Below, piece after piece: positions 24,401 to 25,926 of a stretch of DNA of 64,000 bases. The notes under the pieces were generated by a model that ran no database searches, was not told the DNA's origin, and saw only the letters and a program-made list of their open reading frames with translations. The position numbers and the translations under genes are program-made. Numbering within the stretch: the first letter of the stretch is position 1; every line of letters starts with the position of its first letter. The DNA comes from Candidatus Latescibacterota bacterium (lineage in GTDB: Bacteria; Latescibacterota; UBA2968; UBA8231): the NCBI GenBank assembly GCA_022819745.1, contig JAJEGS010000030.1:62001-126000 (forward strand). The letters are read 5' to 3'.

Positions 24401-24625
24401 ATCTTCATGTCCATGATTACCAGCGCCTTGGGGATGCTGCCGCTAGTCATCTTTCCCGGCGCAGGCTCCGAACTCTACCGGGGCTTGGGCAGCGTCGTCA
24501 TCGGCGGTCTGCTGCTGTCCACATTATTCACCCTCTTCCTGGTACCCACCTTCCTCAGCTTGGCCATGGATCTAAGGGCTTGGATCAGCCGACCGTCAAC
24601 GACTTCTACGGCCCGGATAACGTAG
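21467..24625 (+). CDS. RND (AcrB/MexF-like) efflux permease
   Basis: A 1052-residue resistance-nodulation-division transporter that exports compounds using the proton gradient. It shows the family N-terminus (DTAIKRPVSVIVGVLFVALFGLI), PDVDRPIVTVSTVWPGASPEEVE, the TM4 segment GMSFAVGMVIDNAIVALENI with the proton-relay acidic residue, and the matching C-terminal half (FVILIGVVVNNAILIVHQT). The last 11 residues (PSTTSTARIT) are not original. The copy of the 3' end at 25852-25926 reads ...LRAWISRVGRA and stops. The present end arose when a segment carrying a PhyH gene was inserted. The pump is otherwise complete, and the tail change lies after the last membrane segment. Confidence 0.93.
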   Translation: MRLVDTAIKRPVSVIVGVLFVALFGLISLFRIPVQLTPDVDRPIVTVSTVWPGASPEEVEQEIVQRQEEQLKSVEGLVLMTSESNDSRGVVTLEFNVGVDPDAVLLLVSNKLDQVFGYPLDAERPVLSAGGTGPGGAITWIILDVLLDRDGLDVERYRDYAEEVVKTALERVPGVAQSNIYGGYDRQLQVIVDPQAMAARQITVQDLSQALAWENANISAGAFDEGKRRYIVRTVGQYQQPSDIEQVVVRSADGTRVTVGEIARTRLGYVRAGAAVRQKGRSAIAINAQRETGANVLEVMDGIRRTIRELNEGPLAREGLHLTQVYDETDYIDSAIGLVRSNIIIGGTLAVTVLFIFLRSISSVAIIATAIPISIVGTFLAMWLLGRNINVISLAGMSFAVGMVIDNAIVALENIFRHQQMGKTRVRAALDGASEVWGALLASTLTTVAIFLPIVFVEDEAGQLFRDIAIAVSCSVVLSLIVAISVIPSLANKILGGNKQRGDVLAAWGDRARNFIAQSVFRISGSTVLRLGVITGLIGLSLVIAWTLLPKSEYLPTGNRNLVFGIILPPPGYNLDELIQVGQTIEDALRPHWEAAAAPDSPQAQALSGPPVDNMFFVAFGRSAFMGARSADPTRVRELIPIIQGPVFGGVPGTFAIVQQSSLFQRGGSSGRAIDIEITGPDLGRLIGLGGRIFGQVRQVVPGAQTRPIPSLDLGNPEVRILPDRVRAADLGLSARDIGSAVNALLDGALVDGYQFQGEEIDLVLRGEEDWFRTQDIEALPIYTPRGQLVPLSAVARVEVTTGPEQINHIERSRAITVQVIPPETIALETVLDDIQTQIVQPLVDSGQLAPPYQIQLSGSADDLRRTRQALQWNFLLALVITYLLMAALFESFLYPFVIMLSVPPALAGGILGLEVVNLTLTYQPLDILTMLGFVILIGVVVNNAILIVHQTLNILRNAPETPIKEAIRDSVFSRVRPIFMSMITSALGMLPLVIFPGAGSELYRGLGSVVIGGLLLSTLFTLFLVPTFLSLAMDLRAWISRPSTTSTARIT
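24533..24591. repeat. 59-bp direct repeat, left copy (3' end of RND gene)
   Basis: Identical to 25852-25910 except one base (24577/25896). It lies within the last codons of the permease gene. Together the two copies bracket the PhyH insertion; the offset is 1319 bases. Confidence 0.95.
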
Positions 24626-24697
24626 CGTCTGATCGGGGTTCACCCGTTGTATTGCCACCACTGGCCGTTGACGAGCTCCGGACCTTTCGTGTGAATG

Positions 24698-24706
24698 TGA
24701 TACAAT
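24698..24706 (+). promoter_or_regulatory. Candidate extended -10 promoter of the inserted PhyH gene
   Basis: TGATACAAT has the form TGnTACAAT of an extended -10 element, 70 bases before the PhyH ATG. No good -35 lies 17 bases upstream, which extended -10 promoters do not need. It lies within the inserted segment, so the gene may bring its own promoter. Confidence 0.35.
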
Positions 24707-24775
24707 GCCCGGTTTGCAGGGGCAGGTGAAGATCATCGCCGCACTCACCCGGCACCTTTCCATTCGGAGACATTC

Positions 24776-25666
24776 ATGACTTTGACCAAAGAACAGAAAA
24801 ACCAATTTTTCCAAGACGGCTATATCGTCGTCAAAGGACTGCTGACCACGGACGAACTCGAGACCCTGCGCAACCACTACGCCGACCTTGCGCTCGGTCG
24901 CGTCCCCGACTACCCGGAAGGCAACATCTCTCACCACCCTCCGGGAACGGCTCAAGCCGCAGAACCGCCCACACCGCACGGAAGCCGACATGACCGACGC
25001 GGCACTCAGGTTTACCCGCAAGGGGAAGTAACCGCCCCAGCAGATCGCACGCCGGTTGCGGACCCGCTGGATACGGTAAGTCATCTCAACCTGCCTTCGT
25101 ACCACCATTCGGTTTTCAATGCGTTTGTACGAAGCCCCAAAATCGTCGACATCATCGAATCCCTGATGGGGCCGGACATCAAGCTCTACTACGACCAGGT
25201 CTTCGCGAAGCCGCCATACGCCAAAGCGAATCGCTACCATCAGGATTCCATTTTCTGGGCCTTCTTCGCGAGCAACTTCCAAGTCACATGCCAGGTCCTG
25301 CTCGACGATGCAACTGTCGAGAACGGTTGTGTGCGTTTCATCCCGGGCAGCCACCACTTCGGCCTCGTCAACTGGGACCATCTCCCCTACATGCTGACAG
25401 AGGATGTGCTCGCCCAAGAGGTCGCTGTTCCACTGAAGGCAGGTGATGCGACCTTTCACCACAGCCTGGCACTCCATTGCAGCGGCCCGAATACAACGCC
25501 GTACCGGCGGCGAAGCTGGTCGATTCACTACGTCTCTTCGGACACGCGTTACATCGGTACACCCGAAGAGACCGAACTCCTTAAACAGCGCGGTTGCCTT
25601 GTCGGGCCGGAACCTGTCAACGGCTGGCCCCTGATCCGTGGGCGCGAGTTCCCAGGGTGTGTATAG
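24776..25666 (+). CDS. Phytanoyl-CoA dioxygenase family protein on an inserted segment
   Basis: A PhyH-type Fe(II)/2-oxoglutarate oxygenase of 296 residues. Iron ligands: YHQDS (HxD-like, near residues 151-153) and the His in LALHCSGPN; the 2-oxoglutarate Arg is in TPYRRRSWSIHYV. The C-terminus GWPLIRGREFPGCV is typical of one large PhyH group in sponge-symbiont and related bacteria. Residues 58-95 (TAQAAEPP...RTPVA) look out of place: low complexity, His/Arg/Pro-rich, unlike the rest of the family there. The gene sits inside a 1.3-kb insertion at the end of the RND gene and is not part of the pump operon. The substrate is unknown. Confidence 0.85.
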   Translation: MTLTKEQKNQFFQDGYIVVKGLLTTDELETLRNHYADLALGRVPDYPEGNISHHPPGTAQAAEPPTPHGSRHDRRGTQVYPQGEVTAPADRTPVADPLDTVSHLNLPSYHHSVFNAFVRSPKIVDIIESLMGPDIKLYYDQVFAKPPYAKANRYHQDSIFWAFFASNFQVTCQVLLDDATVENGCVRFIPGSHHFGLVNWDHLPYMLTEDVLAQEVAVPLKAGDATFHHSLALHCSGPNTTPYRRRSWSIHYVSSDTRYIGTPEETELLKQRGCLVGPEPVNGWPLIRGREFPGCV

Positions 25667-25851
25667 TCGGACCGCAGCGGGATACTACAGGCCGGCTCCG
25701 GCACCAACCGCTTCCGGCTCTCTCCTACGAGAAGGTTGTCGAACGCGCCACGCCGACGATGCGCCGTATTTATGGGTTCGATTCCCAACCTCAGCCGCCG
25801 GATCAGCCTACGCGGTAAGTGCCTTTCGCTGATAAGGCTTTCCAACCTTGT

Positions 25852-25926
25852 CTCTTCCTGGTACCCACCTTCCTCAGCTTGGCCATGGATCTAAGAGCTT
25901 GGATCAGCCGCGTTGGGAGAGCATAA
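25852..25926 (+). pseudogene. Duplicated 3' end of the RND permease gene (right copy of the 59-bp repeat)
   Basis: Bases 25852-25910 repeat 24533-24591. They run on in the permease frame to the original end: ...MDLRAWISRVGRA and TAA at 25924-25926. It has no start codon context and is not a gene; it shows where the permease gene ended before the insertion. Between the PhyH stop (25667) and here I see no gene. Confidence 0.9.

What the first reader, a model, noticed from the sequence alone, without database searches (positions are those of the whole stretch)
24533..25926. PhyH gene inserted at the 3' end of the RND permease gene with a 59-bp target copy
A 1319-base segment with a PhyH gene and its own candidate promoter lies between two copies of the last 59 bases of the permease gene, with one mismatch. 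The right copy reads on to the ancestral C-terminus (RVGRA). The permease now ends in ten foreign residues. No mobile-element gene is present. This is the same kind of scar as at the restriction island 11 kb away and may be how PhyH genes multiply in these genomes.
Basis: seen in the sequence. Interest (0 to 1): 0.75.

Follow-up and report, generated by a model that had tools for sequence, protein, structure and literature searches.

The report
Imported oxygenase gene with duplicated neighbour end
In an uncultured Latescibacterota bacterium, a small oxygenase gene sits between two copies of the end of a neighbouring pump gene, and related species show that it was imported at this spot and spread between species, leaving a scar of a kind already known from restriction genes.

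Summary
In detail: a 1,260-bp insert with an intact PhyH gene lies between two copies (58/59) of the RND permease 3' end, and the right copy runs on to RVGRA-stop. Relatives prove an insertion: five genus genomes have an empty site, four carry the same PhyH there. The copy is not a fresh target duplication. Right-copy remnants differ in length between genomes, and G001/G002/G005 carry a divergent permease 3' end on the left. The PhyH has synonymous divergence 0.02-0.07 between species, against about 0.2-0.3 for most pairs of flanking genes, so it spread after the species split. The insert is a mosaic with IS91-type transposase and second-PhyH remnants. No support that PhyH genes multiply this way: 0 of 56 other PhyH loci showed a flanking repeat of 30 bp or more, in a test that found 3 of 5 known cases. 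The same scar surrounds other cargo (protease gene, toxin-antitoxin pair). Best reading: import by homology at one gene end, giving the known footprint 'insertion with long target duplication'.

The parts
21467..24625 (+). RND permease gene; last ten codons are foreign
   Evidence: ACR_tran 1.6e-204; ORF
24533..24591 (+). left copy of the permease 3' end
   Evidence: direct repeat, 58/59
24592..24775 (+). left foreign segment, shared with G011 (90%), last ~80 bp also with G002 (96%)
24679..24770 (+). degenerate 3' end of an IS91-type (Y2_Tnp) transposase gene, ending next to the PhyH start
   Evidence: score 54; 0 of 200 shuffles and 0 of 300 genomic pieces reach it; the same motif lies behind the Y2_Tnp domain in G007 and G009
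24776..25666 (+). PhyH (PF05721) gene, intact
   Evidence: aligns over the HxD and distal-His regions with solved PhyH-type oxygenases (which residues bind iron is recalled)
25667..25741 (+). segment shared with G001 and G005 (93-96%), absent from G011 and G002
25732..25818 (+). last ~28 codons of a different PhyH gene (remnant)
   Evidence: matches 3' ends of ORFs in G006, G007, G034, G026, G032; the G034 ORF, the one scanned, is PhyH
25852..25910 (+). right copy of the permease 3' end
25911..25926 (+). ancestral permease terminus (RVGRA-stop)
25931..25952 (-). hairpin read as a terminator on the minus strand; a like hairpin follows the permease at empty sites

Best explanation
A laterally acquired PhyH cassette sits behind the permease gene. 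Foreign DNA carrying a homologous permease 3' end plus cargo recombined with the resident permease gene on one side and was closed on the other side by illegitimate (microhomology) joining: either a trimmed, re-circularised fragment entering by one RecA crossover, or homology-facilitated illegitimate recombination of a linear fragment. The result is full gene - cargo - leftover native gene end - original downstream DNA. The cassette then moved between species of the genus at the same site, probably by homologous recombination in the permease end, and was rearranged by deletions. Shown: insertion, duplication, empty sites, recent lateral spread, donor-type permease end in three genomes, mosaic make-up, the same scar topology elsewhere in the genus. 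Inferred: the recombination route, and that recombination between the repeats would remove the cassette and restore the old terminus.
For: Empty sites in G004, G006, G007, G008, G009; occupied in G001, G002, G005, G011. PhyH dS 0.024-0.070 for 10 species pairs, against 0.07-0.32 in the permease and 0.18-0.26 in PolX for the same pairs; fewer silent changes than the permease in 9 of 10 pairs (p 5e-6 to 1e-16) and than PolX in 10 of 10. The last 126 bp of the permease are 79-85% alike between the window and G001/G002/G005 but 92-99% alike among these three, against 92% in the first 2,700 bp among the three; the left boundary of the divergent stretch differs in G005. The same topology elsewhere: L177, a 51-bp PhyH end around a trypsin-like protease gene, with one copy in G002, G003 and G011; L334, a 150-bp PhyH end plus a 94-bp start of the next gene around a PIN/RHH pair, with the inner joint at a shared CCGCCCT. 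Precedent: in E. coli, DNA homologous at one end gave a partial duplication of that gene end in 56 of 60 clones (109-950 bp in the 14 sequenced), explained by re-circularisation and single crossover (PMC3240628, abstract and passages).
Against: In the window itself both copies look native and nearly identical (58/59), which a staggered-cut duplication would also give; gene conversion must be assumed if the duplication is old. The donor-type left end in G001/G002 is longer than their right remnant, which a single crossover alone does not give without later loss. No donor locus was found. The microhomology joint is seen at L334, not at the focal site. Window and G001 do not differ in permease dS and PhyH dS (p 0.75). 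At the L177 site G001 holds about 1.4 kb of other DNA and only one 51-bp copy. Competence genes were not searched.
Confidence: 0.6

Rival explanations
1. A transposable unit inserted the PhyH gene and made a long staggered-cut target duplication (as recalled for IS1549/IS1634-type elements).
For: Near-identical 59-bp copies in the window; one clean case elsewhere (L177: single copy in three relatives).
Against: No transposase among the insert's ORFs of 80 aa or more and no inverted repeat at the insert ends (the one pair found, 24664-24684/25604-25624, is internal and 81% complementary); different right ends in different genomes and divergent left alleles; cargo differs from site to site.
Confidence: 0.1
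2. An IS91-type rolling-circle element carried the PhyH gene by one-ended transposition; only its transposase ends remain.
For: Two different IS91-type transposase C-terminal remnants at this one site; few such matches in the 11 genomes (0-7 each at E<=0.1; that search did not list the focal remnants, so it undercounts degenerate ones).
Against: The remnant joins the PhyH start inside the transposase reading frame, not at an element end; such elements make no target duplication (recalled); the other scars were not checked for such remnants.
Confidence: 0.12
3. Tandem duplication of the intergenic region inside one genome, followed by replacement of one unit, made the repeats; no import step was needed.
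For: L334 looks like two stacked alleles of one intergenic locus; a tandem-duplication joint looks the same as a circle joint.
Against: The cargo of the two L334 units differs; the PhyH cassette is younger than the species split.
Confidence: 0.15

Closest known systems
Insertion with long target duplication (Nobusato et al. 2000, Gene 259:99; not read, seen as quoted in passages of PMC1643837, PMC3031569, PMC3154945)
   Same: Insert absent from relatives, bounded by long direct repeats of variable length that are single-copy at the empty site
   Different: Described as frequently associated with restriction-modification genes; here the cargo is a metabolic oxygenase gene, shared by five species at one site, with allelic divergence between copies
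Single crossover of re-circularised linear DNA / homology-facilitated illegitimate recombination in E. coli (PMC3240628, abstract and passages)
   Same: Foreign DNA joined behind a partially duplicated gene end by homology at one end only
   Different: A laboratory assay with 109-950 bp duplications; here 59 bp at the focal site (51-150 bp at the two best other sites), inferred from sequence
PhyH abundance in Poribacteria (PMC3909097, passages)
   Same: Uncultured lineage with very many diverse PhyH genes
   Different: Other phylum; the passages read describe abundance and diversity and mention no insertion footprint

Membership tests
Insertion with long target duplication | Insert absent from orthologous site in relatives | tested here: met
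   G004, G006, G007, G008, G009 empty
Insertion with long target duplication | Long direct repeats at the borders, one copy at the empty site | tested here: met
   58/59 in the window, 46/50 in G011, 81% over 52 bp in G002, none detected by BLAST in G001 and G005; single permease end at empty sites
Insertion with long target duplication | Restriction-modification cargo (frequent, not required) | tested here: not met
   PhyH only
One-sided homologous import (single crossover or HFIR) | Donor-type gene end in one copy, host-type in the other | tested here: inconclusive
   Seen in G001/G002/G005, not visible in window and G011
One-sided homologous import (single crossover or HFIR) | Illegitimate/microhomology joint inside the repeat pair | tested here: inconclusive
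   CCGCCCT joint at L334; donor of the focal joint unknown
Transposon with target-site duplication | Transposase gene and terminal inverted repeats | tested here: not met
   No such ORF and no repeat at the ends
IS91/ISCR rolling-circle element | Y2 transposase gene | tested here: not met
   Only C-terminal remnants in the insert; PF04986 matches in 2 of 9 genomes searched, as fragments
IS91/ISCR rolling-circle element | oriIS and terIS ends | not tested
   no search made
Integron gene cassette | attC site and integrase | not tested
   no search made

The most novel reading that the evidence does not exclude
Gene-end duplications mark a common, element-free gene-uptake route in these uncultured Latescibacterota: incoming fragments anchored by a short gene end are stacked behind genes at preferred intergenic places, so that different cargos (PhyH, toxin-antitoxin, protease, R-M) replace or pile on each other and spread between species.
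Probability: 0.35. Interest if true: 0.65.

Novelty: new member of a known kind. Interest (0 to 1): 0.45.

Why it matters
The direct repeat is a readable footprint of how single metabolic genes can enter chromosomes without an intact mobile element, in a genus with 39-90 matches to this PhyH per genome (11 genomes). The multi-species series here (empty, occupied, eroded, mosaic) lets the order of events and the spread between species be tested directly, and extends a scar known from restriction genes to an ordinary enzyme gene.

Tried and rejected
Rejected or not supported: PhyH-specific copying by gene-end duplication (0 of 56 loci with a flanking repeat of 30 bp or more; the test missed G001 and G005 among five known cases; L177 and L188 are among the 56, but there the PhyH is the repeated gene, not the cargo); the PhyH as a recent copy of the other PhyH1 locus of G001 (dS 0.45-0.49); a viral carrier (no match to six close peptide patterns in viral contigs); an own promoter. 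A protein search gave 103 relatives without genomic context and was not used further. No claim is made that such repeats are commoner here than elsewhere: pairs not inside one ORF (40-400 bp, 88% or more, gap 300 bp or more, spacing up to 8 kb) were 6 in 400 kb of G005, 5 in 400 kb of G008, 2 in the 64-kb window and 1 in 200 kb of E. coli K-12, too few to compare. L188 (151-bp PhyH start repeated) is more complex: relatives hold the cargo without the extra copy. Rows dropped: the codon analysis left out orthologues under 70% coverage or with internal stops (G011 for the MFP gene; G002 and G004 for the convergent gene; G001, G002 and G004 for the inositol-phosphatase gene); G003 and G010 had no permease orthologue and count neither as empty nor as occupied. 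The 56 PhyH loci were taken by hand from the listed matches of five genomes, not all their matches. Transposase references were 4 C-termini. Literature searches; Furuta et al. 2010 (PMC2853133) is not held and is known to me only from citations; for the papers cited I saw passages or abstracts, not whole texts.

Full report
What is there. The window is from a Candidatus Latescibacterota genome, judging by its relatives: the nearest permease genes lie in MAGs most of which are titled Latescibacterota/Latescibacteria or Gemmatimonadetes. Its own assembly is not held; the nearest genome is G001. The RND permease gene (21467-24625) is followed by an intact PhyH gene (24776-25666) and then by a second copy of the permease's 3' end. 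The two copies match 58/59 at a spacing of 1319; 1260 bp lie between them. After the right copy come RVGRA-stop and a hairpin that the scan reads as a terminator on the minus strand. The permease on the left ends in ten residues that relatives at the empty site do not have.

It is an insertion. In G004, G006, G007, G008 and G009 the permease runs to its own stop, followed by a hairpin and the convergent gene. In G001, G002, G005 and G011 the same PhyH gene (97-98% to the window; 97-99% over all pairs) is at the same place. G003 and G010 gave no permease orthologue. All five occupied sites keep at least about the last 40 bp of the permease reading frame on the right (G001 has lost the stop). 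The remnants start at different points: the window's is longest (75 bp to the stop), G011 and G002 share a middle one, G001 and G005 a short one. In the window, G001, G005 and G011 the right copy has AAGAGC (G002: AAGGAC), where the left copies of window and G011 and the empty site of G004 have AAGGGC and G008 has AAGGGG; the more distant empty sites differ further. So these four right copies probably share a history after the duplication.

It is not young in place, but it is a recent traveller. Between the five species the PhyH has dS 0.024-0.070. The permease body has 0.07 (window-G001) and 0.20-0.32 (the other nine pairs), PolX 0.18-0.26. Silent differences are fewer than in the permease for 9 of 10 pairs (Fisher p 5e-6 to 1e-16; window-G001 is not different, p 0.75) and fewer than in PolX for 10 of 10 (p 8e-5 to 2e-12). 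The gene is not short of silent change in general: against the other PhyH1 locus of G001 and that of G024 dS is 0.45-0.49. The cassette therefore most likely moved between species after they split. Its dN/dS of about 0.3 (0.27-0.49) suggests constraint, weaker than in most neighbours. It aligns over its HxD and distal-histidine regions with solved PhyH-type oxygenases.

The insert is a mosaic. Upstream of PhyH lies a degenerate C-terminus that reads as an IS91-type transposase; after the permease stop in G001/G002/G005 lies another (for each of four pieces tested none of 200 shuffles or 300 genomic pieces scored as high). The family assignment rests on the motif lying behind the Y2_Tnp domain in G007 and G009. 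Behind PhyH the window has the last codons of a different PhyH gene. G005 has a luciferase-like monooxygenase gene between permease and PhyH (PF00296), of which G001 keeps a 41-bp remnant. In G001, G002 and G005 the last 126 bp of the permease are 79-85% alike to the window but 92-99% alike among themselves (92% among themselves in the first 2,700 bp); G005 switches to the divergent allele later than G001 and G002 do. That points to import or later exchange through the permease end by homologous recombination.

The wider class. A general PhyH-copying role finds no support: 2 of 56 PhyH loci have a flanking repeat, of 23 and 27 bp, against 2 of 20 control loci; but the test found only three of the five focal sites. 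Other gene-end repeats do surround other cargo. L177 (G005) has a 51-bp PhyH end on both sides of a trypsin-like protease gene; in G002 and G003 the flanks overlap by exactly 51 bp and in G011 by 50 bp, i.e. one copy, while G001 has one copy and about 1.4 kb of other DNA. L334 (G005) has a full PhyH gene, a PIN/RHH pair, a 94-bp start of the next gene (epimerase), a 150-bp PhyH end, a GmrSD gene, then the full epimerase; in G001, G002, G003, G008 and G010 PhyH and epimerase are adjacent, and G011 and G004 hold pieces of the toxin-antitoxin region. The inner joint reads through CCGCCCT, which the PhyH end has, and which the epimerase start has in G002 and G003, though not in the full epimerase of G005 itself or in G010. 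This looks like two alleles of one intergenic place stacked by a microhomology joint. L335 (G008) has the same topology around a gene with a borderline PIN match (no empty site tested). The window's R-M island (10133-13527) is flanked by a degenerate and an intact nucleosidase-like gene. The left remnant's 3' part is closer to G011 (91%) than to the intact copy (82%), but its 5' part is closer to the intact copy (94%) than to G011 (88%), so its history is mixed.

Mechanism. The common topology at the focal site, L177, L334 and L335 is full gene - cargo - leftover gene end - native downstream. A staggered-cut duplication would give it, but does not explain divergent alleles, unlike cargo or the L334 joint. 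Import with homology at one end does. In E. coli, DNA with one homologous end gave a duplication product in 56 of 60 clones, put down to re-circularisation and one crossover, while 4 of 60 appeared to be true homology-facilitated illegitimate recombination (PMC3240628, passages). I commit to this kind of one-sided homologous import, at 0.6. Which of the two variants acted at the focal site is open.

Known kind. Insertion with long target duplication was described from Helicobacter pylori and is frequently associated with R-M genes (PMC1643837, passages; also PMC3031569, and PMC3154945). High PhyH numbers are known from Poribacteria (PMC3909097, passages). In the held library one search for Latescibacterota with sponge and phyH found no paper, and one for Latescibacter with phytanoyl-CoA dioxygenase found only the Poribacteria paper. 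So I file this as a new, well-resolved member of a known kind, with a metabolic cargo.

Noticed in passing
window 9687-14519: R-M island (C5-methyltransferase gene at 10133) between a degenerate and an intact nucleosidase-like gene; G005 has the flanking gene and one nucleosidase copy side by side. The left 3' fragment is nearer to G011 (91%) than to the intact copy (82%), the 5' fragment the other way round.
   Followed up: partly
window 29263-31272: A second R-M-like pair: HTH plus a sub-threshold BsaWI-type endonuclease match, and an N6/N4 DNA methylase.
   Followed up: no
L112 (G011:C31) 10480-13305, reverse strand: G011 carries a further island (941-aa N6/N4 DNA methylase-type ORF and a 408-aa ORF) between the hairpin and the convergent gene, so this intergenic place took a second insert.
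   Followed up: partly
L039 about 9192-9246; L134, L135, L136: A repeated element around the palindrome ACCGATATCGGT (not perfectly kept in L134 and L136), lying upstream of unrelated genes in G001, G002 and G005; maybe a shared operator or promoter.
   Followed up: no
L334 (G005:C1:1077500-1084500): Stacked PhyH-end / toxin-antitoxin / epimerase-start / GmrSD arrangement with a 7-bp microhomology joint.
   Followed up: yes
L188 (G008:C1:2408293-2416832): First 151 bp of a PhyH gene repeated upstream of two small ORFs (one DUF2283); relatives hold the cargo without the extra copy.
   Followed up: partly
L107 (G001:C62) and L250 (G024:C108): The PhyH1 gene at another locus behind another PhyH-type gene (upstream genes 91% alike), in two genera with PhyH1 dS only 0.14, itself suggesting recent transfer between genera.
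   Followed up: partly
window 41714-41943: Five overlapping copies of a 110-nt direct repeat.
   Followed up: no
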